Source of the DNA: Cryobacterium psychrophilum
GTDB taxonomy: Bacteria > Actinomycetota > Actinomycetes > Actinomycetales > Microbacteriaceae
Assembly (NCBI RefSeq): GCF_004365915.1
Contig: NZ_SODI01000001.1
Span: 1 to 64,000 of the forward strand
Reading direction: 5' to 3'
DNA: 64,000 nt
How positions within the stretch are numbered: position 1 is the first letter of the stretch; every line of letters begins with the position of its first letter. The position numbers and the translations under genes are program-made. Below the pieces are notes generated by a model. It was not told the DNA's origin, did no database searches, and was given only the letters and a program-made list of their open reading frames with translations. Shown here piece by piece: positions 17,044 through 34,435 of this stretch.

Positions 17044-17180
17044 GCAGTCAGTCTAGTTTTCTTGGCCGTCTGAGAAACTAAAAACAAATGTCTAAGTCCT
17101 GACCCCCATGGAAGCTACGCCGTGGCGCTGTATGACGAGGGTAATGCAACCCTGACTTGATAGCGGAGCCCTATTAGGTC

Positions 17181-17195
17181 ACACTCATGTTGTGT
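17181..17195. promoter_or_regulatory. SufR-type operator, second copy, between lipBA and ygfZ
   Basis: ACACT-CATGT-TGTGT matches the site at the sufR start (29985-29999) in 14 of 15 bases. The surrounding ATTAGG and TTAAT blocks are conserved too. The form ACACT-N5-TGTG is what I recall for mycobacterial SufR. It is followed by a decayed sufR 5' end. It could be a fossil or a live site acting on the flanking Fe-S-related genes. Confidence 0.6.
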
Positions 17196-17310
17196 TAATA
17201 TCTGACCGCCACCGATCCGACGTCACTGACGTGTCCAGCCAGGGAGCTCGTGGTCTTGAGGTGCGCACCCGGGATCGGGTCCGGCAGACGCTCGGCGAGG
17301 ATGTCCCGCT
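17192..17310 (+). pseudogene. Relic of a sufR 5' end
   Basis: Starting from GTG at 17192 the frame gives MLISD, then about twelve non-matching residues, then [20 protein letters not shown]. The intact SufR at 29996 begins MLITD and has [17 protein letters not shown]. The match breaks off at the winged-helix region. Promoter bases upstream match as well, so a segment with promoter and gene start was duplicated and then truncated. The rest of 17311-17531 shows no independent gene. Confidence 0.75.
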
Positions 17311-18602: not shown

Positions 18603-18656
18603 TTCATATCGTTGGACGGTGACGCGAACAGGGCGAGAGCGACCGGCATCTCTCCG

Positions 18657-18800
18657 GCACGGTTCAGTGTTGGTCGCCGGCCGGGGCCGCTCTCCGTTCG
18701 TGCAGCCAGGTAATAGGTCTCTCCGGGAGCCGGATGTCGATCTGCCGCTGCGAGAAATGCTGCCGTGCAGGGTTGTTCTCATTGCGAGCGCCAGTTGTGT
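18657..18800 (-). pseudogene. Relic of an aconitase 3' end
   Basis: On the minus strand this piece encodes RNENNPARQHFSQRQIDIRL followed by ITWLHERRAAPAGDQ. The intact aconitase at 19713-21692 ends RNEDYAARQNFSQRQIDMLL, then ISWLQERRAAETRD. Nucleotide similarity extends past the stop codon. Only the last 40 or so codons of the second aconitase gene survive, between ygfZ and the cupin gene. Confidence 0.8.
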
Positions 18801-19277: not shown

Positions 19278-19601
19278 TCAGGCAACAGCCTGCGGCGGCA
19301 GTACAGCAATCACGGAGTGATCCTTGGCAAATATGCCCACCTTAGCGGCTCCCCCCGGAGAGCCGATGTCGTCGAAGAACTCGACGTTGGCCTTGTAATA
19401 GTCGGCCCATTTCTCCGGCACATCATCTTCATAAAAGATGGCCTCAACTGGGCACACGGGCTCACAAGCACTGCAGTCGACGCACTCATCCGGGTGGATG
19501 TAGAGCATCCGTTCGCCCTCATAAATGCAATCGACCGGGCATTCTTCGATGCAGGCCCGATCTTTCACGTCGACGCAGGGAAGAGCAATAACATACGTCA
19601 T
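19278..19601 (-). CDS. fdxA: 7Fe-type ferredoxin (FdxA-like), copy 1
   Basis: The 107-residue soluble electron carrier begins [17 protein letters not shown]. Its first cluster set is broken up as in 7Fe ferredoxins (C-x7-C-x3-C type N-terminus: [13 protein letters not shown]). The second motif [17 protein letters not shown] is a regular Cys-x2-Cys-x2-Cys-x3-Cys-Pro. I chose the ATG at 19601, preceded by GAAGGGAG, which gives the same length as the paralogue at 29525-29848. The two copies are nearly identical to residue 75 or so and differ mainly at the C-terminus. It lies downstream of aconitase on the same strand. Confidence 0.93.
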
Positions 19602-19712
19602 AGTGGCAAGGCTCCCTTCACGCACAGCAGACTTTCAGCTTACGACAACCGGGTGATCAAATCCAGATTACGCTGTCGGACCCGTTGGGGACGGGCATGC
19701 ACACGGCACGGT

Positions 19713-21692
19713 TCAGTCTCGATCGCGGGTCTCGGCCGCTCTCCGCTCCTGCAGCCAGGAAATGAGTCCCCCCGCGAGCAACATGTCGATCTGCCGCTGT
19801 GAGAAGTTCTGCCGGGCAGCGTAGTCCTCATTGCGAGTCTTATTGTGCACGGTGATCGCGGTTCCGGCGGCGAGGGCCTCGCGGATGCCGTCCAGCACCA
19901 GAACATCGTCACGCTGGATGCGGTCGTGATCGGTCGCATCCGCGAATTCGAGCGCGAGCACACCAAAATTGGCAAGATTCTGCCAGTGGATGCGTGCGAA
20001 CGACACGGCGAGCACCGCGCGCAAGCCCAGGAACCGCGGCGTGATGGCGGCGTGTTCGCGTGAGGAACCCTGCCCGTAATTAGCGCCGGCCACGATGATG
20101 TGTCCAGTCGACTCGCGCGTGTCCTCCGCGCGAGTCGGGTAGGATTCATCGACCTGGTCGAAGGTGAAGCGAGCCAGCTTAGGTATGTTGCTGCGGTAAG
20201 GCAGCACCCGCGCGCCAGCCGGCAGGATCTCATCCGTTGAAATGTCATCGCCCACCTTGAGAATGACCGGTGCCGCGATGCTATCGGCCAAGGGAGTGAA
20301 CATAGGCAGCGACGAAATGTTTTCGCCCTTGACCAGTGCAACCTTCAGAGCCTCTTCGATGGGCAATGGCGCCTCGAGCATCGCCAGGTTGACACTCGAC
20401 GTCGTTGGAAGTGCGAGCGTGGGATAGGTCAGGTCGAACAATTCTTCCAAGTCTCGTGGGTCGGTGATCTTTCCGGTGAGGGCGGCCGCAGCGGCTGTCT
20501 CCGGTGAACACAGGTAGACCGAGTCTTCCTTGGTGCCGGAGCGGCCGGGAAAGTTGCGCGGCATCGTGCGCAGGCTGATGCTGCCGTTCGCGGGGGCCTG
20601 ACCCATTCCAATGCAGCCCATACACCCCGACTGGTGCAGCCGCGCGCCCGCACTGATCAAATCCAGGGTGGATCCCATGTGGGTCAGATCTTGCAAAATC
20701 TGCCGGGAGCTCGGATTGACGTCGAAGGAAACTCCCGTGTGGGATTGGCGTCCCTTGACGATAGCGCCGACGATCGCGAAGTCGCGCAGCCCTGGGTTTG
20801 CCGAGGAGCCGATGACGACCTGCGCAACCGGTCGACCGGCGACTTCGCTCACCGGTACGACGTTGCCAGGGGAGCTGGGTAGCGCGATGAGTGGCACGAT
20901 CGTAGACAGATCAATCTCGTCGTTCACGTCGTATGTTGCATCCGCATCGGCGAGCAGCGGGACGAAGTCGCCCTCACGTTGTTCGGCCTTCAGGAACATT
21001 CGAACTTGGTCATCGGCCGGGAATACCGTGGTCGTAGCCCCCAGCTCGGCGCCCATGTTGGCGATCACGTGCCGGTCCATCGCGGTGAGGTTCGCCAGGC
21101 CCGGACCGTAGTACTCGACAATGCGATTCACCCCGCCCTTGACGCCGTGACGGCGCAGCATCTCGAGTATGACGTCCTTGGCGCTCGTCCACGGCGGAAG
21201 CTGGCCGGTGAGGCGCACACCCCAGATTTCGGGCATCCGAATGTACAGCGGCTCTCCGGCGATCGCGAGAGCCACCTCGATACCGCCCACCCCGATAGCC
21301 AACATGCCCAGCGAACCCGCAGCGGGGGTGTGACTGTCGGAGCCGACCATGGTCTTGCCTGGAATGCCGAAGCGCTGCATGTGCGTGGGGTGTGAGACTC
21401 CATTGCCGGCCTTGGAGAACCACAGACCGAACCGCTGGCAGGCTGAACGGAGAAAGTCGTGGTCTTCGGCGTTCTTGCTGTCGGATTGGAGCAGGTTGTG
21501 GTCGACGTACTGCACGGATACTTCGGTGCGTGCTCGATCCAGACCGAGCGCTTCGAGTTCGAGCATGACGAGGGTCCCGGTGGCGTCCTGCGTGAGAGTC
21601 TGATCGATGCGCAGGCCGATTTCGGCACCCGGTTTCATCTGGCCGCTGAGCAGATGAGAAGCGATCAGTTTTTGGGCAACGTTGTACGCCAC
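19713..21692 (-). CDS. acn: Aconitate hydratase (mitochondrial-like, short form)
   Basis: The protein is 659 residues from a GTG at 21692 preceded seven bases upstream by a perfect AGGAGG; longer starts lack a site. It interconverts citrate and isocitrate in the TCA cycle. Cluster ligands appear as QSGCMGCIGMGQAP plus a third Cys in YLCSPETAAAAALTG. Substrate-binding and catalytic motifs are VGSDSHTPAAGSLGMLAIGVGG and, in the swivel domain, VAGANYGQGSSREHAA with the catalytic Ser. The length corresponds to the compact aconitase class rather than the usual ~900-residue actinobacterial AcnA, so it may be imported. A 3' relic of a second copy lies at 18657-18800. Confidence 0.9.
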   Translation of the reverse strand: MAYNVAQKLIASHLLSGQMKPGAEIGLRIDQTLTQDATGTLVMLELEALGLDRARTEVSVQYVDHNLLQSDSKNAEDHDFLRSACQRFGLWFSKAGNGVSHPTHMQRFGIPGKTMVGSDSHTPAAGSLGMLAIGVGGIEVALAIAGEPLYIRMPEIWGVRLTGQLPPWTSAKDVILEMLRRHGVKGGVNRIVEYYGPGLANLTAMDRHVIANMGAELGATTTVFPADDQVRMFLKAEQREGDFVPLLADADATYDVNDEIDLSTIVPLIALPSSPGNVVPVSEVAGRPVAQVVIGSSANPGLRDFAIVGAIVKGRQSHTGVSFDVNPSSRQILQDLTHMGSTLDLISAGARLHQSGCMGCIGMGQAPANGSISLRTMPRNFPGRSGTKEDSVYLCSPETAAAAALTGKITDPRDLEELFDLTYPTLALPTTSSVNLAMLEAPLPIEEALKVALVKGENISSLPMFTPLADSIAAPVILKVGDDISTDEILPAGARVLPYRSNIPKLARFTFDQVDESYPTRAEDTRESTGHIIVAGANYGQGSSREHAAITPRFLGLRAVLAVSFARIHWQNLANFGVLALEFADATDHDRIQRDDVLVLDGIREALAAGTAITVHNKTRNEDYAARQNFSQRQIDMLLAGGLISWLQERRAAETRDRD

Positions 21693-21773
21693 AGGGGATC
21701 CTCCTGGTTCGAGCGCCGCCGAGAGTATCTCGTTGGCGACCATCCTGCGAAGAGTTCCGCAGCACTTCCAAAT

Positions 21774-22692
21774 CTAGGCCAGTGCCCCCTGAATGGCTAG
21801 CAGTCCTGCCATAACCAATGGTGCGACTAGTCCGGCAGAGATTGTCCGCGCAGTTCCGGTAGCCCCAGAGCGGCGCCGGCGGCCACCACGAAAACGACAC
21901 CAAAGACGGCGAATAGCAGGATCGGCCCGCCCGCTTCTAGGACGCTGCTGAACCAGCAGGGGCGCCGCGATCGAGGCGATCCGGCCAACGGCGGCAGCCG
22001 AGCCAGTCCCGGATCCGCGCAGCCGTGTGGTGTACAGCTCCGGCGTGATGGCGTACAGGGCGCCCCACGCACCCAGGTTGAAGAAGGAGAGCAGCATGCC
22101 GAAGATGATGATTTGGGTTTCGCTCCCGTTGACCGCGCCGAAACCAAAGGCAGCTGCTGCCCCCGCTGAACCGATCAGAAACGTGGACAGGGTCACCCGT
22201 CGGCCCCACTTCTCGACCAGATATGCCGACGCCGCGTACCCGGACAGCTGGGCGAGGGTGATGATAAGGGTGAATCCAAATGACTTGACGAGCGGAAACC
22301 CGCTGGCCATGAGGAGCGTCGGTAGCCAGATGAAGGCGCTGTAGTAAGAGAAGTTGACCAGAGCCCAGACCAGCCAGATCCGGATGCTGCGACGCCGCAC
22401 TTCGATCGAGAACAAGTCGGCCAATCGACCGCGTCGTGCCGGTGCCGATCCCGATCGCGGCTATGACGGCCATGCCGGCGAACCCGACCGACGCGACCCA
22501 CGAGAGGGCAGTCGTGCCGACATCCCAGGTCAGGGAGAGTTGCTCGATGACGAACGAAATGAGCCCGACATCGAAGGCATCGAGTGCCCAGCCGACTCCC
22601 GATCCGGCCAGAAGGCCCGCGTGGCGTCGGGTGAACGGCAAACGGTCGAGGCGTTCGTTGAGGGATTCGCCGGACGTGCTGATTTCGGACAT
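21774..22692 (-). pseudogene. MFS transporter pseudogene with internal deletion and frameshifts
   Basis: The N-terminal part (from 22692) reads LDRLPFTRRHAGLLAG, then GWALDAFDVGLISFVIEQLS, TM1 of a sugar-porter-like MFS protein. After about 100 residues the frame changes. A second frame (about 22424 to 21800) encodes WLVWALVNFSYYSAFIWLPT, EKWGRRVTLSTFLIG and a later ALYAITPELYTTRLRGSG. Roughly 130 residues between these parts (TM3-TM6) are missing, and the C-terminus runs out of frame. A paralogous N-terminal fragment lies on the other side of the mevalonate-suf block at 35504. Confidence 0.8.
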
Positions 22693-22860
22693 GAACTCTT
22701 CAAATGTCTGCCGAGACGCGAACGGGACTGCGCTCCGGCATCCGGCGCTTCAACTATTTTAGGTGACTGGCGGCAGTCGCGGCGCCTCAGGGCGGGTTGT
22801 TGTAATCTGGCAAGTGTTCAAGGCAGGACACGTATTTACTTGAGGAAGCCGAGGTACCGG

Positions 22861-23382
22861 GTGCAGTTAGTCGAACTCGTCGATGAGAACGGCCGTCACC
22901 AGGGCAGCCTGGAAAAAATCGCAGCCCATGAGGCGCCCGGCCGCCTGCACCGTGCCTTCTCTGTTTTTCTAGTAGACGATTTCGGGCGAATTCTGCTGCA
23001 GAAACGGGCCGCAACCAAGTACCACTGGCCGAACACGTGGTCGAACTCCTGCTGCGGGCATCCTTCAAGAGCGGAAACGGTGGTTGAGGATGCCGTGCGT
23101 CGCGTCTATGAAGAACTTCGAATTCAGGCAGACTCGGCCAGGCAGGTAGGACTGGTCAGCTATCGTTTCGAAGACCACCAGACCGGCTTGGTTGAGCACG
23201 AATACAACCACGTGATTGTTGCGCACTACACGCAGCCCGCGGAATGGAACCCGGACGAAGTGGCCGCCATTCAGGCGGTGGAGCCGAGCGAACTCGCAGC
23301 GTGGCTCGAAGACAAGAACGTCACCGGGTGGTTCTGGGATGTCTTTCGCGTCTTTGCCGACCACATTTCTCACCAAAAGTAA
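22861..23382 (+). CDS. idi: Isopentenyl-diphosphate delta-isomerase, type 1
   Basis: This 173-residue Nudix-fold enzyme starts at the GTG at 22861. It isomerises IPP to DMAPP, the last step served by the neighbouring mevalonate genes. Visible motifs are LHRAFSVFLVDDFGRILLQK, the catalytic Cys in TWSNSCCGHP, the modified Nudix box (VEDAVRRVYEELRI) and the metal/catalytic Glu in EHEYNHVIVAH. The frame is open upstream into the MFS relic, but homology starts only here. It converges on the fused HMG-CoA reductase-mevalonate kinase gene, 28 bases apart. Confidence 0.93.
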   Translation: MQLVELVDENGRHQGSLEKIAAHEAPGRLHRAFSVFLVDDFGRILLQKRAATKYHWPNTWSNSCCGHPSRAETVVEDAVRRVYEELRIQADSARQVGLVSYRFEDHQTGLVEHEYNHVIVAHYTQPAEWNPDEVAAIQAVEPSELAAWLEDKNVTGWFWDVFRVFADHISHQK

Positions 23383-23410: not shown

Positions 23411-25744
23411 CTACACGGTCGAGTCCGTGGCCGGCGGCTCGGTTGCTGCACGGATCTCGGTCAGATGGGTCGTGTATCCGGCCAGCTGCATGGCGCCCGC
23501 GACCGCAACGGTGCGGTCGGGTTCGGCAATCGCGATCATGGCTCCGCCCCCTCCGCCGCCGGTCAGTTTCGCACCGAGCGCGCCAGATCGCCGGGCGATC
23601 GCGACGAGAGTTTCAAGCTCGGGGCTCGACACCTGCAGCGCGTTGAGCAGCCCGTGATTGATATTCATCAGATCGCCGAGCTCGGCAATGTCGCCGCGCT
23701 CCAGGGCGCCTACCCCGGCCAGCGCCAACCCGTCGATCTGCTCGAAGATCCCGTCGTAGCGGGACGGGCTTTTGGCCCAGGCGGTACGCACCAGGCTGAC
23801 GGTGCGTGCCGTGAGGGATCGCACGCCGGTCAGGCCGATGATGACCGGGATCGGATGTGGGACAGTGACGGCCGAGAAGTTGGCGCTCCGTGCCCCATTC
23901 GCCTTGCGAAACAGAATCGGTCGGCCAAAAGTGGCGACCGTGTTGTCGATCCCGGACGGGGTGCCGTGCACTATTTGTTCGCACTCGAAGGCGAGCGCGT
24001 TCACCTCGTTGTCGGTGAGCCGGATGTTGAAACAGTTCGCCATTCCGCGGATGATGGCTACCGCGAGGGCAGCGGATGCCCCCAGCCCACTTGCCCGGGG
24101 AAGGCTCGGGAAGACCTCAATGCGCATGCCAGACGCGCTGATGCCCAGCCGCTCGATGATCAAGGCGGCGATGCGCACCGGGAGATCCGAGTCGGCTGAT
24201 TCGGCTGATTCGGCTGATTCGGCGGAATGGGCATTGCCAGATGTTACCAGGCCGGGAATGACGAGCTCTGTCCCGGATTCCTGGCGGGTCACCTGCGCCC
24301 GAATGGACAGTGCAATCGGGGCGGCGATGGCGTGATAGCCGTAGACAACGGAGTGCTCGCCGAACAGAATGATTTTACCGAAACCAGCCGTTCGGCCCAG
24401 ATCGGGCACCTCGTGCAGAATACGGGTGGCGGCTGTGGCGGCTGCAGCGGGTGCGGCGGGGTCGGTCATCGATTCGAGAATGTGGCGCGCCTTCCACACC
24501 TTGATGTTGCCGCTGGCGACCAGACTGTCGACCACATCGTTGAACCGTTCGCCCGAAGCGCCGGCCGCCACCGCCACGCTGCGGGCGTGCAATCGCATAT
24601 GTCCCTGTTGAATTCCCTCTGTCGACAGCGCCCGGAGCGCGGCGAAATTCTGCGCCAGGCCAACGGCAGCCATCACCTGCGCCAGCTCCGCCGCGGAATC
24701 GACTCCAAGAATGTCGAGGGCAATTCGCACCAGGGCATTTGATTCCACCTGTCCGCCGACAATGCCGACCTTCAGCGGAAGCTCCAGTTCGCCCACGAGG
24801 TCGCCGTTATCATTTTTTGACCAGACGGTCAGCGGGGAATATCGGCCGCTGCGGGCGGCATAAGCGTGCGCCGCAGCCTCGATGGCCCGCCAGTCGTTGC
24901 CGGTGGCGATGGCGACAGCGTCGATGCCGTTCATGACGCCCTTGTTGTGCGTGGTCGCCCGGTAGACATCCATCAACGCAAATTCGTGGGCCACGATGAT
25001 GCCATCTCGAACTTGTTCGCCCGAGAAAGTTTCCGACTTGAGCTGATCGACCGCAATGACGGCGCGGGCGCGCACGAGCGCGTGGTCGGTGAAATTTGAG
25101 AGGATGCGCAGAAACACACGCCCGCCGCTGATTTCTTCGATGAGCGGAGCGACCGCCTCGCACATCGTATTGACCAGATTGGCGCCCATGGCATCACGGC
25201 TGTCCACAATGAGATGGACCACGAGCAGCTCGCCGTGTTCGGCCGTTGAGCCACGTAGAAACACCTGGATGTCACTGGCCCCGCCACCACGAGCCACCAT
25301 ATTCGGATGCTGCTCGTTGGCCAGATCCACAATCTCACCCTTGCGTCGGAGCAGCTCGGCCCGGGCCACGTGGGGGTCAGGGAGATCGAGCACCTGCACC
25401 TGACCGAGCAGCAGTGGCGTGTCGGCGATGCTGGTGAATCCGCCGGAGCGCCCAATCCGGCTGGCGGCTGCGCTGACGGCGGCAATGATCGAGGGTTCTT
25501 CAACCACCATGGGGATGAGGTAGTCCCGCTGATTGATCTGAAAATTCAACCCGAGGCCCATCGGCATCGAAAACACGCCGATCACGTTTTCGGTAAGCCG
25601 ATCGGCCGTTGCGGCGTCGAGACGATAGCTGCCCGTGCGGAGGGCGGCGAAGTTGTCCTGGTTGAGGATGCCGCGCTCGTATAGAAGCTCGAGCCGTTCG
25701 GTCACGGTGAGCTTGTAAAACTTGGAGAGATGGGCATTTTTCAC
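23411..25744 (-). CDS. Fused class II HMG-CoA reductase - mevalonate kinase
   Basis: This single 777-residue frame runs from a GTG at 25744 whose GTGA overlaps the stop of the phosphomevalonate kinase gene. Residues 1-425 are a class II HMG-CoA reductase: ENVIGVFSMPMG, catalytic Glu in VEEPS, DAMGANLVNTMCEAV, Lys of NKGVMNGID, Asp of GNDWRA and the C-terminal His of GHMRLHAR. A 25-residue Ala/Pro-rich linker follows. Residues ~450-777 are a mevalonate kinase: GFGKIILFGEHSVVYG, PRASGLGASAALAVA, HGTPSGIDNT and GGGGGGAMIA. It would therefore make mevalonate and phosphorylate it. No stop or frameshift separates the domains, and both keep all key residues. I know of HMGR fused to thiolase in enterococci but not to mevalonate kinase. 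Confidence 0.93.
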   Translation of the reverse strand: MKNAHLSKFYKLTVTERLELLYERGILNQDNFAALRTGSYRLDAATADRLTENVIGVFSMPMGLGLNFQINQRDYLIPMVVEEPSIIAAVSAAASRIGRSGGFTSIADTPLLLGQVQVLDLPDPHVARAELLRRKGEIVDLANEQHPNMVARGGGASDIQVFLRGSTAEHGELLVVHLIVDSRDAMGANLVNTMCEAVAPLIEEISGGRVFLRILSNFTDHALVRARAVIAVDQLKSETFSGEQVRDGIIVAHEFALMDVYRATTHNKGVMNGIDAVAIATGNDWRAIEAAAHAYAARSGRYSPLTVWSKNDNGDLVGELELPLKVGIVGGQVESNALVRIALDILGVDSAAELAQVMAAVGLAQNFAALRALSTEGIQQGHMRLHARSVAVAAGASGERFNDVVDSLVASGNIKVWKARHILESMTDPAAPAAAATAATRILHEVPDLGRTAGFGKIILFGEHSVVYGYHAIAAPIALSIRAQVTRQESGTELVIPGLVTSGNAHSAESAESAESADSDLPVRIAALIIERLGISASGMRIEVFPSLPRASGLGASAALAVAIIRGMANCFNIRLTDNEVNALAFECEQIVHGTPSGIDNTVATFGRPILFRKANGARSANFSAVTVPHPIPVIIGLTGVRSLTARTVSLVRTAWAKSPSRYDGIFEQIDGLALAGVGALERGDIAELGDLMNINHGLLNALQVSSPELETLVAIARRSGALGAKLTGGGGGGAMIAIAEPDRTVAVAGAMQLAGYTTHLTEIRAATEPPATDSTV
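24193..24219 (-). repeat. Three 9-bp tandem repeats inside the mevalonate kinase domain
   Basis: CGGCTGATT occurs three times without a gap and is flanked by partial units. On the coding (minus) strand it yields an SAE-type tripeptide run (SAESAESAESADSD) between two strands of the GHMP N-domain. The 9-bp unit preserves frame, so length variants would remain translatable. Confidence 0.85.
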
Positions 25745-26856
25745 AGGGAGTCCTTCTTCGTGCACGCTGAATCGAAGCCGGCAGCAGTGCCAGTGCCAGA
25801 GGTGTCGATCCCGCCGGCACAGACAGTGAGCGGCACGATCTGTGCCTCGGCGCGGGTGAGTGCCGCAGCCAGTCGACGCGCCGGGGCCCCGCTGCGCGCA
25901 AACGCCAGCCCAACATCACCGCCGCCCGCCCCAGACGACTTGAACACGCCGCCGAGACGAGCCGCCAGGGCGTGCAGCTGCCGGTGCCGGTCGCTGATGA
26001 TGCCCGCTTGCGCGTGGGCGTCGAGGGTGACCAGTGCGTCAAAATACTGCGCCGCAAGAGGTAGAAAGGTGTCAGCCGTGGCGAGCGCGGGCACGGCCTG
26101 TTCGGCCAGCTCGGCCAGCCTGGCCAGATCGCTGCGGTAGGTGCTGGCGTCCCTCCGAGCGAAGTCGGCGACACGACCGACCAACTCGGGGGTACTGCTG
26201 CCCGCCCCGGTGACGACCACCATCATGCTGAGGTCGCTCGGCCAGCGAAGTGAAGCCACGGAGACCGCCGGGCCGAGATGAGTTCCCGGCGCATAGCTGA
26301 TGAGACCACCGGCCACCGCCGCGGCCACGTCGCCTCCGCTGCCGAGTGCACCCTGGGCCTGGCGGTGAGCCGTCAGGGCTGCCGCGAAGAGTGCAGCGTT
26401 GTCGAGGTCACGGGCGCGAGCGCGAGCCAGGCTAGCGGTTAGGGCGACCGCGACCGCCGCGCTCCCGCCCAGGCCCAACTTGTGGCCATCCATCGAGAGC
26501 TCGCTGCTGTCGATGGTGATCGACAGCGCCTGATCAGGGCGCGCTCGACAAGGTCTGCGGGACCCATCATCGCCGCCGGCAGCTTCGGCCACAGTCCGCC
26601 GCACAGCGTCATAGAGGCGGAGCTTCTCGCGGGTCGGCCCGTCGAGGGAGGCGGGCACGGCACCGTCGGGTTCCAGGGTGAGGCTCTCTACACCCAGACC
26701 GGGGGCGTCGAGGAGCCAGCGGTCGGCATCCGTCGTCGCAATTCTCACTCGAACGCGACGATCGACCGCCGTGAGTAGCGCCGGGGCGCCCTCGAGCACG
26801 GCATACTCGCCGAGCAGAAAGAGTTTCCCGGGCGCGGAGGCGTGGAACGTGGGCAC
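25741..26856 (-). CDS. Phosphomevalonate kinase (GHMP family)
   Basis: This 371-residue GHMP kinase starts at a GTG that shares its first base with the stop of the decarboxylase gene. Motifs are ASAPGKLFLLGEYAVLEG at the N-terminus, KLGLGGSAAVAVALTASL as the ATP loop, ALGSGGDVAAAVAGGL and SGAGGGDVGLAFARSG at the C-terminal glycine motif. It converts mevalonate 5-phosphate to the diphosphate. The assignment to phosphomevalonate kinase rests on the GEYAVLEG signature and on its place between MvaD and the mevalonate kinase domain. Translational coupling on both sides indicates one mvaD-pmk-mvaA/mvk transcript. Confidence 0.9.
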   Translation of the reverse strand: MPTFHASAPGKLFLLGEYAVLEGAPALLTAVDRRVRVRIATTDADRWLLDAPGLGVESLTLEPDGAVPASLDGPTREKLRLYDAVRRTVAEAAGGDDGSRRPCRARPDQALSITIDSSELSMDGHKLGLGGSAAVAVALTASLARARARDLDNAALFAAALTAHRQAQGALGSGGDVAAAVAGGLISYAPGTHLGPAVSVASLRWPSDLSMMVVVTGAGSSTPELVGRVADFARRDASTYRSDLARLAELAEQAVPALATADTFLPLAAQYFDALVTLDAHAQAGIISDRHRQLHALAARLGGVFKSSGAGGGDVGLAFARSGAPARRLAAALTRAEAQIVPLTVCAGGIDTSGTGTAAGFDSACTKKDSL

Positions 26857-27860
26857 TACGCCGCCACGAGGTGCGCACCTCGGCCGAGAGCGCTCATCCG
26901 GGTCTGGAGTACTCCCGGCGTTGCGGCGAGGGCGTGCGCGACCAGGGCGGCATCCGCGGGGGCGCAGAGCGCCTTGACCTGCGGGCCGGCGTCGATGGTG
27001 AAATATACGGCGACTCCTTGTGCACGCAGCTCGCGTACGGTACCCATCGCAGCGATCGTGCCGGCGTTCCAGTAGATCAGAGCCGGTCGGCTGGTGAGCA
27101 TCAGGGCGTGGAGTTTTAGGCAGCTGTACTCGGTCAGCTCGCCGAGCTGGGCCAGATCGTGCCCGGCGATGGCGGCTCGCATCTCGGCGAGGTTTTGCTC
27201 GCTCGTGTCGACCCAGGCCGGGAAGAACGGCGACGTTGCCCGGCTGCCCGCCATTCCATGAGTGGACGAGATCGCCTTGGGGCCGGCCGCGGTGATAGCC
27301 ACGACAACAGAGAGTGGCCAGTGGTCGGGCGAGAGAATCGGTTCGGCGTAGGCATCCGCGCCATCGTCACGACTTCCGGCGTGCATCTCAACGTAACCGC
27401 CGAAGATGGATCGCGCCGCCGAGCCCGACCCCCGGCGCGCGAGAATCGACAGCTCCCGTGCGTTCAGGGCCAGCCCGGCCGCCGTGCTGGCAGCGAGGGC
27501 GAGGGCGGCGAAACCGGAGGCCGACGAGGCCAGCCCGGCCCCGGTCAAGAAATCATTGCTCGAGGTGACGACGGCACCCTGGGTAGTGCCGGCGCGCTCT
27601 CGCACCAGATCGAGCAGGCCGAGCACTCGGGGTGACTGGGTGAGTGCACCGTTGAGCCAGAATTCGTCAGTCTGGCGCGCCCCAAGGTTTGGACGGAACT
27701 CGACGTGGGTATCGGTGGCAAGGGCATCCAGGGTTATTGAGATCGACCCGACGGCGGGAATATTGAGAGTGTCGTCGCGTTTTCCCCAATATTTGATCAG
27801 GGCGATATTGCTGTGCGCGCGCGCCGTGGCACTGTGTCGACCATCGATGGGTCTGTTCAC
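26856..27860 (-). CDS. mvaD: Diphosphomevalonate decarboxylase
   Basis: The protein is 334 residues from the GTG at 27860, with GGAG seven bases upstream; an ATG 27 bases further up is possible. It is a GHMP-fold enzyme with AHSNIALIKYWGKRDDTLNIP (the KYWGKRD signature), SSNDFLTGAGLASSASGFAAL as the ATP/phosphate loop, a RGSGSAARSIFGGYVEM stretch and the catalytic Asp in FTIDAGP. It decarboxylates mevalonate diphosphate to IPP. It is the first gene of the minus-strand mevalonate operon and is divergent from the HMG-CoA synthase, with a short shared promoter region at 27861-27972. Confidence 0.93.
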   Translation of the reverse strand: MNRPIDGRHSATARAHSNIALIKYWGKRDDTLNIPAVGSISITLDALATDTHVEFRPNLGARQTDEFWLNGALTQSPRVLGLLDLVRERAGTTQGAVVTSSNDFLTGAGLASSASGFAALALAASTAAGLALNARELSILARRGSGSAARSIFGGYVEMHAGSRDDGADAYAEPILSPDHWPLSVVVAITAAGPKAISSTHGMAGSRATSPFFPAWVDTSEQNLAEMRAAIAGHDLAQLGELTEYSCLKLHALMLTSRPALIYWNAGTIAAMGTVRELRAQGVAVYFTIDAGPQVKALCAPADAALVAHALAATPGVLQTRMSALGRGAHLVAA

Positions 27861-27972
27861 AGGAGTGCTCCGATCGGGTCTGAGCAAATTCTACCCTGCG
27901 TGGGGCAGCCCGACCGGTCTCAGACTGGCCCCGCAGCGAGCGAAGTCTGCATAAAATTGTGTAGCGGCGGTA

Positions 27973-29502
27973 ATGCCGCACTCGACGCACCTCGGCGCAT
28001 TGAAATGGGCACTGTTGTTGAAATCGGCACTGTTGGCACCTGGAATCAGCGGACTGTCCCTGTACTTGCCGCCCTATCGCGTGCAGTTGGACGAATGGTG
28101 CCAGTGGAATGACGAATCGTGGACCAAAATTCGCGCTGTCGTCGGGCGTTCGTTTCGCATGCGAGGGCCCCAGCACAATGTTTACACCCTCGCCGCCAGT
28201 GCGGCCCTGCGCTTGATCCGAGACTATGACATCAACCCGGCCCAGGTCGGGTTTCTCGCGCTTGGCACTGAATCGTCGAGCGATAATTCGGCCGGAGCCG
28301 TCATCGTCAAGGGCATGATCAATGACGGCCTGCGTGCGAACGGCCAGAGCCAGCTGGCGCGGGACTGCGAGGTGCCGGAGTTCAAACAGGCGTGCCTCGG
28401 CGGCGTGTACGGGCTCAAAGCGGCTCTGCGCTATCTGGCGACGGATGGCGTCGGCCGGCAGGCCATCGTGATCTGCGCCGATGTTGCCGAGTATGCGATC
28501 GGCTCCACCGGTGAACCGACGCAGGGTGCCGGCGCGGTGGCCCTGCTCGTCAACGGTGACGCCGACCTTCTTGAGGTGGATCTCGCCGCGGTCGGCAGCG
28601 ACTCGCAGTACCGCATCGCTGACTTTCGCAAACCGTTCACTCGCTTTCGCCAGTCTGAGCGCGAGGACGGCCAGATGCAGGACCTCCCCGTGTTCAACGG
28701 GCGGTATTCCACGAACTGCTACATCGACGCCACCCGTCACGCGATGGCCGCCATGCTTGCCAAACGCCCAGGTCCCAGCATCGACTACTTCGATGACGTG
28801 GACGCGGTCTTCATCCATCGTCCATACCACCGCATGCCGGCGACCGGATGGGTCATGTCTTACTTATTCGCCCTCGCGGCCGACGGCCCGGCCGGCCAGG
28901 CCCAACTGCGCACATACTGCCGGGCTGCCGGGCTCGATGCGGATATGGTGCTGGCTGAATTACTGACCGAGGATCCGTTCGAGGGGCGAGAAATGGGTGA
29001 CGGCGAGGCCTACCCCTGGTCGCGAAAACTACGTGGGCACCTGTTGCACACCGAGGTCTGGGATCGCATAATTGGCACGAAATTATGGCTGGGCGCCGAG
29101 GCGATGAAGGACTTGGGCAACCTTTACACCGCAGCGCTCCCGGCCTGGCTGGCCGCCGGCCTCGCCCACGCGCACCGGGATGGCATCGAGTTGGCCGGGC
29201 AGGAATGGCTTGCCCTAGGGTACGGCAGCGGCGACGCTGCCGAGGCCATCCCGATGCGTGTCGCTGTGGGATGGAAGGCGGCTGCGGCCAAAATCAACTT
29301 CGAGGCCGCACTGCTGGGCCCGATTGACCTCAGCCAGCAAAACTATGTGGCGCTGCACGAGGGTCAACCCGACGACCTGCCGCCGCTCGTGCCGAACGAC
29401 GAATTCGTCATCGATCGGGTCGGCACAAACAACGGCCCCAACTTCTACGACCTCGGCATCGAGTACTACCGCCACGTCGTCCGGGCGCAGCCTGCTGGCT
29501 GA
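27973..29502 (+). CDS. Hydroxymethylglutaryl-CoA synthase (long form)
   Basis: This thiolase-fold enzyme condenses acetyl-CoA and acetoacetyl-CoA, the first committed mevalonate step. The catalytic triad is visible: Glu in LGTESSSDNSAGA, nucleophilic Cys in FKQACLGGVYGLKAALRYL and His in FIHRPYHRMP. Homology starts at GISGLSLYLPPYRVQLDEW, so the true start may be the TTG at 28033 rather than the ATG at 27973; the leader between them is not family-like. At about 490 residues it is longer than the ~390-residue enzymes of streptomycete mevalonate clusters, which suggests a different bacterial lineage. It diverges from mvaD. Confidence 0.9.
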   Translation: MPHSTHLGALKWALLLKSALLAPGISGLSLYLPPYRVQLDEWCQWNDESWTKIRAVVGRSFRMRGPQHNVYTLAASAALRLIRDYDINPAQVGFLALGTESSSDNSAGAVIVKGMINDGLRANGQSQLARDCEVPEFKQACLGGVYGLKAALRYLATDGVGRQAIVICADVAEYAIGSTGEPTQGAGAVALLVNGDADLLEVDLAAVGSDSQYRIADFRKPFTRFRQSEREDGQMQDLPVFNGRYSTNCYIDATRHAMAAMLAKRPGPSIDYFDDVDAVFIHRPYHRMPATGWVMSYLFALAADGPAGQAQLRTYCRAAGLDADMVLAELLTEDPFEGREMGDGEAYPWSRKLRGHLLHTEVWDRIIGTKLWLGAEAMKDLGNLYTAALPAWLAAGLAHAHRDGIELAGQEWLALGYGSGDAAEAIPMRVAVGWKAAAAKINFEAALLGPIDLSQQNYVALHEGQPDDLPPLVPNDEFVIDRVGTNNGPNFYDLGIEYYRHVVRAQPAG

Positions 29503-29524: not shown

Positions 29525-29848
29525 TCAGATCATCGTCTGTGGCGGTAGTGCTGTGACCAGAGGGTGGTCCATGGCATAGGGCTCGACCTTGGCTGCGCCT
29601 CCGGGGGAGCCGATTTCCTGGAAGAATTCAACGTTGGCCGTGTAATAGTCCGCCCATTTATCGGGCACGTCATCTTCGTAGAAGATTGCCTCTACCGGGC
29701 ACACGGGCTCACAGGCGCCGCAATCGATGCACTCATCGGGGTGGATGTAGAGCATTCGTTCGCCCTCGTAGATGCAATCAACCGGGCATTCGTCGATGCA
29801 GGCCCGGTCTTTAACGTCGACACAGGGCAGAGCAATAACATACGTCAT
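29525..29848 (-). CDS. fdxA: 7Fe-type ferredoxin (FdxA-like), copy 2
   Basis: This 107-residue paralogue of the ferredoxin at 19278-19601 has the same cysteine pattern ([13 protein letters not shown], then [17 protein letters not shown]). Differences cluster after residue 75. It is divergent from sufR, with the SufR-type operator 137 bases upstream, and so is probably co-regulated with Fe-S assembly. It converges on the HMG-CoA synthase gene. Confidence 0.93.
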   Translation of the reverse strand: MTYVIALPCVDVKDRACIDECPVDCIYEGERMLYIHPDECIDCGACEPVCPVEAIFYEDDVPDKWADYYTANVEFFQEIGSPGGAAKVEPYAMDHPLVTALPPQTMI

Positions 29849-29943
29849 AGGGCTCCCTTCAATGTGGTCTATTCAGGGTGGGGTCTTCAAAACCCACCCG
29901 ACCGTCGAGCGAACATTCACCGGACCTAACGGGCAACGAAACG

Positions 29944-29962
29944 GGTAAGGCAAGCCTCACTG
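29944..29962. promoter_or_regulatory. Weak DtxR/IdeR-like iron-box candidate
   Basis: TAAGGCAAGCCTCAC with its flanks resembles the iron-box pattern TTAGGTTAGGCTAACCTAA at roughly 12 of 19 positions, between fdxA and sufR. Iron control of an Fe-S locus makes sense, but the match is loose. Confidence 0.25.
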
Positions 29963-29984
29963 GACTACGGTCATTAATTAGGAC

Positions 29985-29999
29985 ACACTTATGTTGTGT
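29985..29999. promoter_or_regulatory. SufR-type operator overlapping the sufR start codon
   Basis: ACACT-TATGT-TGTGT is an inverted repeat with a 5-base centre. The GTG start of sufR (29996) lies inside the right arm. The near-identical copy at 17181 and the ACACT-N5-TGTG form known to me for mycobacterial SufR support the call. The position implies autorepression. Confidence 0.65.
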
Positions 30000-30760
30000 T
30001 AATAACTGATGCGAAGCAAACTGATGCAGACCGGTCTGATACTGCGACCGCGACGCGGGACCGCGTGCGGCAGACGCTCGCCCAGGATGGTCCGGTCACC
30101 GCGGCCGACCTCGCCGCCGGCTTGGGCCTGACGCCAGCCGCGGTGCGACGCCACCTTGACGCACTCGCCGAGCAGGATGCCATCGAGGAATATGACCCGG
30201 CAGTCGCTGACGCCGACAGTCGCGGTCGGGGGCGCCCCGCTCGTTCATACGTACTCACCGAGACCGGCCATGCCGGCCTGGAGCACCACTACGACGATCT
30301 GGCCGCCGCCGCACTTCGCTTTCTCGCCGAGCATTCCGGGGCGGATGCCGTGGCCACGTTCGCCCGCGAACGCGGAGAAGCGCTGGTGGGCCGATATGCC
30401 GCGCGAGTCGCCGCAGCAGGTGACTCTGTCACAGCGCGCACCAAGGCACTAGCTGCGGCCCTGACCGAGGACGGGTTCGCCGCCTCTGTTCGGCCCGTCG
30501 ATGCGGGGCTTCCAACACCAGCACCGTCGGCGACAATCACGCAGTTGCCCGCGACGGGCTTGCCGGCACCCGGCCTTCAGCTGTGTCAGGGACACTGCCC
30601 GGTGAGGCACGTTGCCAGCGAATTCCCCGCCGTGTGCGAGGCAGAGGCAGAGGCCTTTTCGCAGCTGCTTGGCGTGCGCGTTGACCGTCAGGCGACAATG
30701 GCTGGCGGGGAGCACCTCTGCCGAACGCTCGTTCCCGAGATCGATAAACCAACGACCTAA
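29996..30760 (+). CDS. sufR: Fe-S cluster-sensing repressor SufR (ArsR-like winged helix)
   Basis: The 254-residue regulator has an N-terminal winged helix ([34 protein letters not shown], then a wing with [14 protein letters not shown]). Its C-terminal domain carries the cluster cysteines [20 protein letters not shown], and a last Cys in [11 protein letters not shown]. Holo-SufR represses suf genes; loss of its cluster derepresses them. The GTG start lies inside the operator and lacks a ribosome binding site, so leaderless translation is likely. A truncated copy of this gene start exists at 17192. The 113-base gap to sufB contains a GC-rich hairpin. Confidence 0.93.
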
Positions 30761-30873
30761 CGCCCCTGCGGCCCGTCACCCGGCTTTGCCCGGGGGTCCT
30801 TCTGGCGCGCGCTAAAACACAGTGGCAGCGCGCGTATTCAGGTTTTCCAACAGCACGTGAGAAGGAGACGAAA

Positions 30874-32337
30874 ATGAGTGCACCTACGACCACGGTCGGT
30901 ATTTCCGATGAGGTTCGTGAGCTCGCCAATCAGGATTACAAGTACGGGTTCACCACGGATCTCAAAACCGAAGTTGCCCCCAAAGGACTGAGTGAAGACA
31001 TCATTCGGCTGATTTCAGGCAAAAAGAACGAGCCAGACTGGCTCCTAGAATGGCGGCTGAAGGCGTATCGGCATTGGACCACGCTCACACCGCCCACCTG
31101 GCAGCACGTCTCGTACGGTCCCGTTGACTATCAGGACATCATCTACTACGCCGACCCTCGGCCGAAGAAGCAGATCACGAGCATGGATGAGGTGGACCCT
31201 GAAATCCGGGAGATGTTTGACAAACTCGGCATCTCTCTCGGTGAACAAGAACGACTCAGCGGTGTCGCAGTGGACGCCATCGTCGATTCGGTGTCGGTAG
31301 CGACAACGTTCAAAGACAAGCTGGCCGAAGTCGGCGTCATCTTCTGCTCCTTCTCCGAGGCCGTGCAGGAGCACCCAGACCTGGTACGGAAATACCTCGG
31401 GTCGGTCGTTCCATACAACGACAACTTCTTCGCTTGCCTGAACTCTGCGGTCTTTACCGACGGGTCGTTCTGCTACATCCCCAAGGGCGTGCACTGCCCG
31501 ATGGAACTATCGACCTACTTTCGAATCAATGCCGCCGACACCGGGCAGTTCGAGCGCACTCTGATCATCGCCGAGGATGCCGCGTATGTGAGTTACCTCG
31601 AGGGGTGTACGGCTCCGGTTCGGGACACGAACCAGTTACACGCTGCAGTCGTCGAACTCGTGGCTCTTGATGATGCGCAGATCAAGTATTCGACCGTTCA
31701 GAACTGGTACCCCGGCGACGCGGATGGCAATGGTGGCGTCTACAACTTCGTCACCAAGCGCGGCATGGCCTCCGGGAAGAACTCGAAGATTTCCTGGACT
31801 CAGGTTGAGACCGGCTCTGCGATCACCTGGAAGTATCCCGGCGTCGTCCTGAAGGGCGATAACTCGGTCGGTGAGTTCTACTCGGTGGCCCTGACCGCCA
31901 GACGCCAGCAGGCTGATACCGGCAGCAAGATGGTGCACATCGGGAAGAACACCAAGAGCACGATTATTTCCAAGGCGATCTCGGCCGGTCACGGTCAAAA
32001 TACCTACCGGGGTCTGGTGGACATTCGTCATTCCGCTGTCGGGGCCCGCAACTTCACCCAGTGCGACTCCCTGCTGATCGGTAAGGACAGCGGCGCTCAC
32101 ACCCTGCCTTATATCGACGTGAAGAATCAGACCGGACAGGTCGAGCACGAAGCCTCAACATCGAAGATCGGCGAGGAACAACTCTTGTATTGCCGTCAGC
32201 GCGGCATTCCGGAGGAAGAAGCCGTTTCGATGATTGTGAACGGGTTCTGCCGTGAGGTATTCAAGATGCTGCCGATGGAATTCGCCGTCGAAGCCCAAAA
32301 ATTGTTGACCGTGAGTCTAGAAGGAAGTGTCGGCTAA
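30874..32337 (+). CDS. sufB: Fe-S cluster scaffold subunit SufB
   Basis: The 487-residue scaffold has [13 protein letters not shown] N-terminal [19 protein letters not shown], a long insert [15 protein letters not shown], then [29 protein letters not shown], and [11 protein letters not shown]. It also has [20 protein letters not shown] with the conserved Glu and Cys. With SufC and SufD it builds Fe-S clusters. The region 80-180 ([32 protein letters not shown]) has the character of the proteobacterial/cyanobacterial long SufB rather than the usual actinobacterial one. A GAAGGAG site precedes the ATG. Confidence 0.96.
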
Positions 32338-33101
32338 TGCTACACATCAAGGAATTGCACGCCAGTATCGACAGCAAAGAAATTCTGCGCGGGGTGAATC
32401 TTGACTTGAAGCCGGGCGAGGTGCACGCCATCATGGGCCCGAATGGGTCGGGCAAGTCCACGCTGGCCAGCGTGCTGATCGGCCGCGACGGTTACGACGT
32501 CTCCGGCAGCGTCACCTACGAAGGCCAGGATCTGCTGGCCCTCTCGCCCGAGGAACGAGCCGCGGCCGGCGTATTTCTGGCCTTCCAGCATCCGGTTGAA
32601 ATTCCCGGCGTCGGCAACATGTACTTCATGCGTACTGCACTGAATTCCCTGCGGCGCCAGCGTGGCCAGGAAGAACTCGACGCAGTGGACTTTCTGGCCC
32701 TCGCCCAGGAGCGCATGAAACTCGTCGAGATGGACCAGACCTTCATGAGCCGCTCGGTGAATGAAGGATTCTCCGGTGGCGAGAAGAAGCGCAACGAGAT
32801 CCTACAAATGGCGATTTTGGAACCCAAACTCGCCATTCTCGATGAGACCGACTCCGGCCTCGATATCGACGCTCTGCGCGTCGTGGCCAGCGGAGTGAAC
32901 GCCCTGCGCAGTGAAGGCCGCACCATGCTCGTCATCACCCACCACCAACGCCTGCTCGACTACATCGTGCCGGATTTCGTGCACGTCATGGCGGCCGGTC
33001 AGATCGTGCATTCCGGCGACAAGGACCTCGCCCTCGAGCTCGAAGCCAATGGCTACGCGGGACTGACGCCCCGCTCGGCGCAGGTCGGGGCAACAGTATG
33101 A
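32337..33101 (+). CDS. sufC: SufC ATPase of the SufBCD complex
   Basis: This 254-residue ABC-type ATPase has Walker A GPNGSGKST, Q-loop FLAFQHPVEIPGV, signature SGGEKKRNEI, Walker B LAILDETDSGLD and a switch His in VITHHQRLLDYI. The start codon shares a base with the sufB stop (TAATG). The FMRTALNSLRRQRGQEEL segment is again typical of proteobacterial SufC. It energises cluster assembly on SufB-SufD. Confidence 0.96.
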   Translation: MLHIKELHASIDSKEILRGVNLDLKPGEVHAIMGPNGSGKSTLASVLIGRDGYDVSGSVTYEGQDLLALSPEERAAAGVFLAFQHPVEIPGVGNMYFMRTALNSLRRQRGQEELDAVDFLALAQERMKLVEMDQTFMSRSVNEGFSGGEKKRNEILQMAILEPKLAILDETDSGLDIDALRVVASGVNALRSEGRTMLVITHHQRLLDYIVPDFVHVMAAGQIVHSGDKDLALELEANGYAGLTPRSAQVGATV

Positions 33102-34435
33102 CCGTGGTGAAGGTTCCAGTGCGGGCGGCGGGGGGTGTGCTCTCAGAGCTGTCGTCGGGGCGTGATGGCCGCGATCTGGGCTGGCTCGCTGAGGCGCGTT
33201 TGAACGCCCTCGAATGGGTCGGCAAGAATGGTTTCCCGTCTCGGAAAGACGAGGACTGGAAGTACACTGCGCTCGACGGGATCCTGGCGGTGCCATTCGT
33301 GGCTGCCGTGGCGGGGACTGGCCCCAGGGTCACATTAGACCTCATCAACAAGGCCGCGATCGATCTCGGCGGCCCCCGCCTGGTCTTCGTCAATGGCCAC
33401 TTTTCGCCTGAGTTCTCGCGGCTAACCGGCTTGCCCAGCGGCGCAGTCGTCACGACGCTGGCAGCCGTTCTGGCGGCGAGCCCGGACCGGCTCAAACCGT
33501 TCCTCGGGCACACTCCGGGAGAACACCACGAGTTCGCGGCGTTCAACGACGTCTTCGCCGAGGACGGAGCATTCATCCACCTGACCGCGGACACAATCGT
33601 TGATGAAGCGATCCAGTTGGTCTTTTTCTCCGACACCGAGGGTGTGCCCCTGCTGGAGAGCCCGCGGTCGGTGATCATTGCCGATCCCGGCAGTCGCGCA
33701 ACGATCGTTGAGACCTATGCCGGCATCGACAACGATGTGTACTGCACCAATGTCGTCACCGAGGTCGTCCTGGCCGAGAATGCCCAGATCGATCATTACA
33801 AGGTTCAAAACGAGCCCACCACCGCCTTCCATCTGGCGTTGCTTGATGTTCGCCAGGCTCGTGGCAGCCGGTTCAATTCCCGCTCGGTGATGCTCGGGTC
33901 GAATGTCGCTCGCCACGAAATACGGGTGCTTCTTGAGGGCGTCGAGGCGGAGGTCAGCCTGGACGGCATTTACCTTCCCCAGGGTGAGCAGGTTCACGAC
34001 AACACGATTTTCGTCGATCACGTTGCAACCAACTGCACCAGCCATCAGCTCTATAAGGGCGTACTGGACGATCGTGGGCACGGCGTTTTCAATGGGCAGA
34101 TCATGGTTCGTCATGGTGCCGATGGGGCCGATGCCAACCAGAAGAATAAGAACCTTCTGCTCAATGATCGCGCCCAAGTGGATACTCGGCCGAGACTCGA
34201 AATTTACACCGACGATGTGAAGTGCACGCACGGTGCTGCCGTGGGCCAAATGGATGATGAGGCGTTGCTCTACCTGCGTACACGTGGTCTACCGCTGGAG
34301 AGCGCTCGGGGCCTGCTGGTGTATGCCTTTGTGCAGGAGATGGTGGATCGAATCGAATTGGAGCCGCTCCGTGCGTCGCTTGCGGCGCTCGTGTCCACTC
34401 GGTTCGGAAGCGGTGCCCATCGAGCCCAGCCATGA
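33098..34435 (+). CDS. sufD: Fe-S cluster assembly subunit SufD
   Basis: This 445-residue beta-helix protein overlaps sufC by four bases (ATGA). It has FPSRKDEDWKYTALDG near residue 45. The C-terminal half carries the SufBD core: THQLYKGVLDDRGHGVFNGQ in slightly altered form (TSHQLYKGVLD, GVFNGQIMV), DTRPRLEIYTDDVKCTHGAA with the conserved Cys-x-His, and LRTRGLPLESARGLLVYAF. It pairs with SufB in the SufBC2D scaffold. Confidence 0.95.
   Translation: MTVVKVPVRAAGGVLSELSSGRDGRDLGWLAEARLNALEWVGKNGFPSRKDEDWKYTALDGILAVPFVAAVAGTGPRVTLDLINKAAIDLGGPRLVFVNGHFSPEFSRLTGLPSGAVVTTLAAVLAASPDRLKPFLGHTPGEHHEFAAFNDVFAEDGAFIHLTADTIVDEAIQLVFFSDTEGVPLLESPRSVIIADPGSRATIVETYAGIDNDVYCTNVVTEVVLAENAQIDHYKVQNEPTTAFHLALLDVRQARGSRFNSRSVMLGSNVARHEIRVLLEGVEAEVSLDGIYLPQGEQVHDNTIFVDHVATNCTSHQLYKGVLDDRGHGVFNGQIMVRHGADGADANQKNKNLLLNDRAQVDTRPRLEIYTDDVKCTHGAAVGQMDDEALLYLRTRGLPLESARGLLVYAFVQEMVDRIELEPLRASLAALVSTRFGSGAHRAQP

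What the first reader, a model, noticed from the sequence alone, without database searches (positions are those of the whole stretch)
23411..25744. HMG-CoA reductase and mevalonate kinase encoded as one polypeptide
One uninterrupted 777-residue frame contains a complete class II HMG-CoA reductase and a complete mevalonate kinase with a short Ala/Pro linker. All catalytic residues I can check are present in both. The fusion joins two non-consecutive chemistries (reduction, then phosphorylation of the product) and would allow direct hand-over of mevalonate. The only HMGR fusion I know is with acetoacetyl-CoA thiolase in enterococci.
Basis: partly seen in the sequence, partly recalled or inferred. 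Interest (0 to 1): 0.85.

Follow-up and report, generated by a model that had tools for sequence, protein, structure and literature searches.

The report
HMG-CoA reductase–mevalonate kinase fusion enzyme
A Cryobacterium genome encodes two consecutive enzymes of the mevalonate (isoprenoid) pathway as one protein; the joined form is real and occurs in several bacterial phyla, but database names show only its first half and our literature searches turned up no description of it.

Summary
Window 23411-25744, MINUS strand, is one open frame of 777 aa holding a complete class II HMG-CoA reductase (residues ~1-425), a low-complexity linker and a complete mevalonate kinase (~454-765). It is not an assembly error: 9 of 9 same-genus loci with the gene, and 39 of 80 genome-contig loci (plus one cut by its contig end), carry both domains in one frame. 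The 40 fused loci fall in five named phyla (37 of 40 are metagenome bins), and with either half the fused forms lie on one side of a single supported branch, so one fusion event plus horizontal transfer is the simplest history in this sample. Ten loci of Bacilli and Myxococcota have the two genes separate but adjacent. The fusion lies in a mevalonate operon of a genome that also has MEP-pathway genes. Its reductase lacks the NADH motif and has two of three NADPH-motif positions, so the name 'degradative' is probably misleading. Best reading: a biosynthetic bifunctional enzyme, an irreversible kinase tethered to a reversible reductase. Activities and channelling are untested.

The parts
23411..25744 (-). 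Fused HMG-CoA reductase / mevalonate kinase gene, 777 aa, GTG start, stop included
24470..25744 (-). Class II HMG-CoA reductase half (residues 1-425), catalytic E83, K268, D284, H382; ends after the three-helix C-terminal domain
   Evidence: residue roles recalled from P. mevalonii HMGR
24386..24469 (-). Linker, residues 426-453 (28 aa here; 10-79 aa in 46 aligned fused proteins), pLDDT under 50 at 430-448
23414..24385 (-). Mevalonate kinase half (residues 454-777), GHMP fold, K457, S557, E589, D600
   Evidence: residue roles recalled from human mevalonate kinase
24192..24223 (.). 9-bp tandem repeat (3.6 copies, 100% matches) inside the kinase half, about residues 507-518, at a low-confidence loop
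25741..26856 (-). Phosphomevalonate kinase-like GHMP kinase; its stop overlaps the fusion's start
   Evidence: (TIGR01220 125.2 bits, below cut-off 165.7)
26856..27887 (-). Diphosphomevalonate decarboxylase; its stop overlaps the next start by one base
   Evidence: (TIGR01240 273 bits, cut-off 171.35)
27973..29502 (+). Divergent HMG-CoA synthase-like gene
   Evidence: both Pfam domains over cut-off; every NCBIfam synthase model below its cut-off
22726..23382 (+). Type I isopentenyl-diphosphate isomerase, convergent (frame open from 22348; start chosen by me)

Best explanation
It is a genuine bifunctional enzyme of a biosynthetic mevalonate pathway. The N-terminal class II reductase turns HMG-CoA into mevalonate; the C-terminal GHMP kinase, tethered by a flexible linker to the end of the reductase's C-terminal three-helix domain, phosphorylates that mevalonate with ATP. 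Coupling a reversible reductase to an effectively irreversible kinase at fixed 1:1 stoichiometry would pull flux forward and limit loss of free mevalonate. In the sampled sequences the fused gene arose once and spread between phyla with its operon neighbours. Shown: fusion, domain completeness, conserved catalytic residues, operon context, distribution, one-branch trees. Inferred: both activities, NADPH preference, forward drive, horizontal transfer. Untested: physical channelling.
For: Both halves exceed NCBIfam equivalog cut-offs. Catalytic positions E83, K268, D284, H382, K457, S557, E589, D600 are invariant in 46 of 46 aligned fused proteins, which include 34 of the 40 fused loci. Both halves fold confidently and match P. 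mevalonii HMGR (target TM 0.91) and L. major mevalonate kinase (0.84). MVD-PMK-fusion order in 35 of 40 fused loci. The fused kinase is the only TIGR00549 match over cut-off in the genome and the only HMGR match found with this query, so a working pathway would need both halves. Cofactor helix is HxNxxxR: H146 in 45 of 46, R152 in 46 of 46; 0 of 3 NADH-motif and 2 of 3 NADPH-motif positions as given in PMC13370337 (passages). Fused forms on one side of a branch: HMGR tree SH-aLRT 99, kinase tree 97/90, 96% of 200 bootstrap trees.
Against: No activity data for either half. Position 148 is Ser in 0 of 46, where the NADPH motif asks for Ser. Linker length and sequence vary widely. The phosphomevalonate kinase and HMG-CoA synthase fall below NCBIfam cut-offs, so the pathway's completeness leans on context, and a further GHMP kinase below the TIGR00549 cut-off (83.6 bits, C1:1327776-1328738) was not identified. 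The unfused adjacent pairs have another gene order and are not shown to be the fused clade's sister.
Confidence: 0.85

Rival explanations
1. The fusion gives true substrate channelling: mevalonate passes from reductase to kinase without mixing with the bulk.
For: Consecutive steps in one chain, kept in one lineage across five named phyla.
Against: Linker varies from 10 to 79 residues with little conserved sequence; no confident inter-domain arrangement. Fusion can be kept for co-expression alone.
Confidence: 0.15
2. The frame is one by assembly or sequencing error joining two separate adjacent genes.
For: Adjacent separate HMGR and kinase genes do exist (10 of 80 loci).
Against: One frame in 9 of 9 same-genus loci with the gene and 39 of 80 genome-contig loci; 120 of 120 listed proteins carry both.
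Confidence: 0.01
3. The reductase half is degradative (mevalonate to HMG-CoA), as the database product name says.
For: TIGR00532 is named 'degradative' and many database entries carry the name.
Against: The gene stands with diphosphomevalonate decarboxylase, PMK-like, isomerase and synthase-like genes; NADH motif absent.
Confidence: 0.04

Closest known systems
Enterococcal MvaE (acetoacetyl-CoA thiolase / HMG-CoA reductase; seen as a reference entry and a table line)
   Same: A class II HMGR fused to a neighbouring enzyme of the same pathway in bacteria.
   Different: Partner is the upstream thiolase; here it is the downstream kinase, at the C terminus.
Stand-alone class II HMGR (P. mevalonii, 1qax)
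   Same: About 50% identity, same fold and catalytic residues.
   Different: No kinase domain; D146 where the window protein has H146.
Adjacent HMGR and MVK genes of Virgibacillus, Oceanobacillus, Lentibacillus, Paucisalibacillus and Myxococcota
   Same: Same two genes, same order, in a mevalonate cluster.
   Different: Two separate frames; MVD follows rather than precedes. A possible model of the precursor state, not shown to be it.
IspDF fusion of the MEP pathway (named in PMC13001223, passages)
   Same: Bifunctional isoprenoid-precursor enzyme.
   Different: IspD and IspF catalyse non-consecutive steps; HMGR and MVK are consecutive.

Membership tests
Class II HMG-CoA reductase | Curated model match over cut-off | tested here: met
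   TIGR00532 405.6 bits, cut-off 259.95
Class II HMG-CoA reductase | Catalytic Glu, Lys, Asp, His | tested here: met
   E83, K268, D284, H382 in 46 of 46; roles recalled
Class II HMG-CoA reductase | C-terminal three-helix domain present | tested here: met
   Aligns to 1qax through its residue 421; helices 378-393, 398-411, 416-426 in the model
NADH-type HMGR | Cofactor helix Dx(V/L)xxxL | tested here: not met
   HPNMVAR at 146-152; motif from PMC13370337 passages
NADPH-type HMGR | Cofactor helix (H/Y)xSxxxR | tested here: inconclusive
   H and R present, Ser replaced by Asn
Mevalonate kinase | Curated model match over cut-off | tested here: met
   TIGR00549 241.5 bits, cut-off 163.05
Mevalonate kinase | Catalytic Lys, Ser, Glu, Asp of the GHMP fold | tested here: met
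   K457, S557, E589, D600 in 46 of 46; roles recalled from the human enzyme
Mevalonate kinase | ATP-dependent 5-phosphorylation of mevalonate | not testable with these tools
   needs an assay
MvaE-type thiolase-HMGR fusion | Thiolase domain on the same chain | tested here: not met
   No thiolase domain in the Pfam scan

The most novel reading that the evidence does not exclude
A once-born, multi-phylum family of HMGR-mevalonate kinase enzymes in which the kinase pulls the reductase forward by true channelling, used in some Cryobacterium as an iron-sulfur-free isoprenoid route beside the MEP pathway (whose IspG and IspH need 4Fe-4S clusters, recalled); in the window the operon lies between an accessory sufR-sufBCD locus and ygfZ, aconitase and ferredoxin genes.
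Probability: 0.1. Interest if true: 0.7.

Novelty: new variant of a known kind. Interest (0 to 1): 0.42.

Why it matters
HMGR is given as the rate-limiting step of the mevalonate pathway in PMC13001223 (passages). A natural single-chain HMGR-mevalonate kinase would be a ready part for isoprenoid engineering and a clean system for asking whether fusing consecutive enzymes brings channelling or only fixed stoichiometry. The names given by sources mention only the reductase, so surveys by product name could score such genomes as lacking mevalonate kinase (inference, not tested).

Tried and rejected
Assembly artefact: rejected, see rivals. Degradative reductase: disfavoured by operon and cofactor motif. 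SufR control of the mevalonate operon: the palindrome ACACT-N5-TGTG (recalled as a mycobacterial SufR site, no call) has two exact hits in the window, at the start of sufR and before ygfZ, none in the MVD-HMGS gap; with one mismatch allowed there are 6 hits against a shuffle mean of 8.3, so no link is claimed. Horizontal origin by base composition: fusion GC 0.634 against window 0.632; neighbours scatter from 0.58 (isomerase) to 0.698 (PMK), no clear signal. Co-occurrence with the accessory aconitase: in 6 of 9 same-genus relatives with the fusion and 5 of 27 without, relatedness not corrected, left as a lead. The same count for the accessory SufB was not obtained. Inter-domain geometry from the model: not used, pTM 0.61. 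Internal initiation inside the linker was not tested.

Papers: ten searches, of which searches returned no paper at all and others listed only part of their matches (20 of 109, 10 of 14). Nothing listed names an HMGR-mevalonate kinase fusion, but I opened passages of three papers only: PMC13001223, PMC13370337 and PMC3847144. The library is open-licence PMC; a description elsewhere is possible. I recall no such paper.

Full report
Observation. The frame is real and on the minus strand: 25744 down to 23411, GTG start, 777 aa. The GTG overlaps the TGA of the upstream phosphomevalonate kinase-like gene, and AAGGA lies six bases before it. Pfam finds HMG-CoA_red at 14-387 and the two GHMP kinase domains at 521-606 and 680-752. 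NCBIfam finds TIGR00532 (class II reductase) and TIGR00549 (mevalonate kinase), both over their cut-offs.

Not an artefact. In the genus, 9 of 36 relatives have the gene; the other 27 show no match to the reductase part at E 1e-3. The nine loci (L003-L011) each hold both domains in one open frame (eight of them also). Stops flagged fall at the 3' end of the matched range, where the match runs past the gene's own stop. One of the nine, G034, is identical over 5319 bases to Cryobacterium levicorallinum, which places the window in Cryobacterium. None of the 23 same-order relatives outside the genus has the fusion; two of them (G039, G049) have a separate mevalonate kinase-like gene at 34-35% identity.

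Distribution. Of the 80, 39 hold both domains in one frame, one more (L070) is fused but cut by its contig end, 10 have separate adjacent genes, and 30 have a reductase with no kinase found in the DNA held. By the lineages printed, the 40 fused loci are 26 Pseudomonadota, 5 Actinomycetota, 4 Calditrichota, 3 Acidobacteriota, 1 Planctomycetota and 1 unnamed. Record titles of the 40 metagenome bins; the three isolates are Cryobacterium strains (L034, L035, L047). Single odd placements (Nakamurella L041, Planctomycetota L060) need care. The 120 listed protein hits all carry the three domains; named ones include Cryobacterium, Leifsonia, Rhodoglobus, Rathayibacter and Salinisphaera entries.

Evolution. 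In the reductase tree (quick, 81 rows) the 41 fused rows lie on one side of one branch, SH-aLRT 99. In the kinase tree (careful, 52 rows; L070 left out as cut) the 40 fused rows do the same, 97/90, in 96% of 200 bootstrap trees, with a long-branch warning. In one search the five Cryobacterium rows group with Salinisphaera L033, a gammaproteobacterium (96); a starred set of six fused rows (100/100) holds the window, whose five nearest rows are the same ones, though that call did not print the set's names. Salinisphaera entries are 63-64% identical to the window protein. Horizontal transfer is the simple reading. The order MVD-PMK-fusion holds in 35 of 40 fused loci (for L036 and L055 the script sorted long overlapping frames the other way, and the domain positions put MVD first). 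The other five are L042, L046, L051, L059 and L061. The 10 unfused adjacent pairs run HMGR-MVK-MVD, six with PMK after; they fall in two groups in the reductase tree and are not shown to be sister to the fused clade. As the loci were chosen by likeness to fused proteins, the single origin is supported, not proven.

Anatomy. E83, K268, D284, H382 and K457, S557, E589, D600 are invariant in 46 aligned fused proteins (12 database proteins, the window's included, and 34 of the 40 fused loci; L032-L035, L047 and L070 were left out); their roles are recalled from P. mevalonii reductase and human mevalonate kinase. The stretch from residue 426 to 453 is 10 to 79 residues long in the 46, with Ala, Ser, Gly, Thr and Pro commonest. 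AlphaFold2 gives mean pLDDT 87.5, pTM 0.61, with 430-448, 500-516 and 769-777 under 50; Foldseek matches P. mevalonii HMGR (target TM 0.91) and L. major mevalonate kinase (0.84). The linker follows directly on the reductase's C-terminal three-helix domain, which in class II enzymes is mobile (recalled); whether the kinase affects its motion is open.

Cofactor. PMC13370337 (passages) gives Dx(V/L)xxxL for NADH and (H/Y)xSxxxR for NADPH enzymes and describes others that deviate from both and use either. The window has HPNMVAR at 146-152. Of 46 fused proteins H146 is kept in 45, R152 in 46, and position 148 is Ser in none. NADPH or mixed use is the likelier prediction.

Genome context. The genome also has Dxr, IspH and IspG over cut-off (Dxs, IspD, IspE and IspF not tested), so it probably has both pathways. 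The fused kinase is its only TIGR00549 match over cut-off and the fused reductase the only HMGR match. PMK and HMG-CoA synthase score below NCBIfam cut-offs and are named by Pfam and context. The acetoacetyl-CoA thiolase was not looked for.

Verdict. A real two-domain protein, very likely a bifunctional enzyme, widespread and once-born as far as sampled, named in databases by its first half only, and not found in ten searches of open literature. Interest moderate: a new pairing within a known kind (bifunctional isoprenoid enzymes), with a clear test of channelling attached.

Noticed in passing
window 19278-19625 and 29525-29848 (-): Two ferredoxin genes (the second over the FdxA_Actino cut-off), 260 of 310 aligned bases identical, flank the aconitase-mevalonate block.
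   Followed up: partly
window 17139-17308 and 29943-30094: DNA around the start of sufR appears again before and at the start of ygfZ (76% over 67 bases, 81% over 42), each copy with the palindrome ACACT-N5-TGTG; suggests an old duplication.
   Followed up: partly
window 29996-34363: SufR-like regulator (below the cyanobacterial model's cut-off) with SufB, SufC and SufD; this SufB is 94-95% identical in two of seven relatives tested, the other five having only a 42% paralogue, so it is accessory.
   Followed up: partly
window 19713-21743 (-): Accessory aconitase, in 11 of 36 same-genus relatives; a second copy (91%) lies at C1:506286-508262 of the genome.
   Followed up: partly
window 18641-18788 and 19690-19837: 148-base direct repeat (79%); the first copy overlaps a remnant of an aconitase 3' end.
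   Followed up: no
window 24192-24223: 9-bp microsatellite within the kinase coding sequence; the protein of the nearest listed relative (P0003) has fewer units.
   Followed up: partly
window 27973-29502 (+): HMG-CoA synthase-like protein of about 508 aa, below every NCBIfam synthase cut-off; relatives stand in 14 of 40 fused loci.
   Followed up: no
window 21774-22692 (-): MFS transporter in pieces: 21777-22424 matches only the C-terminal part of MFS models and the overlapping frame to 22692 has no Pfam match; looks like a broken gene.
   Followed up: no
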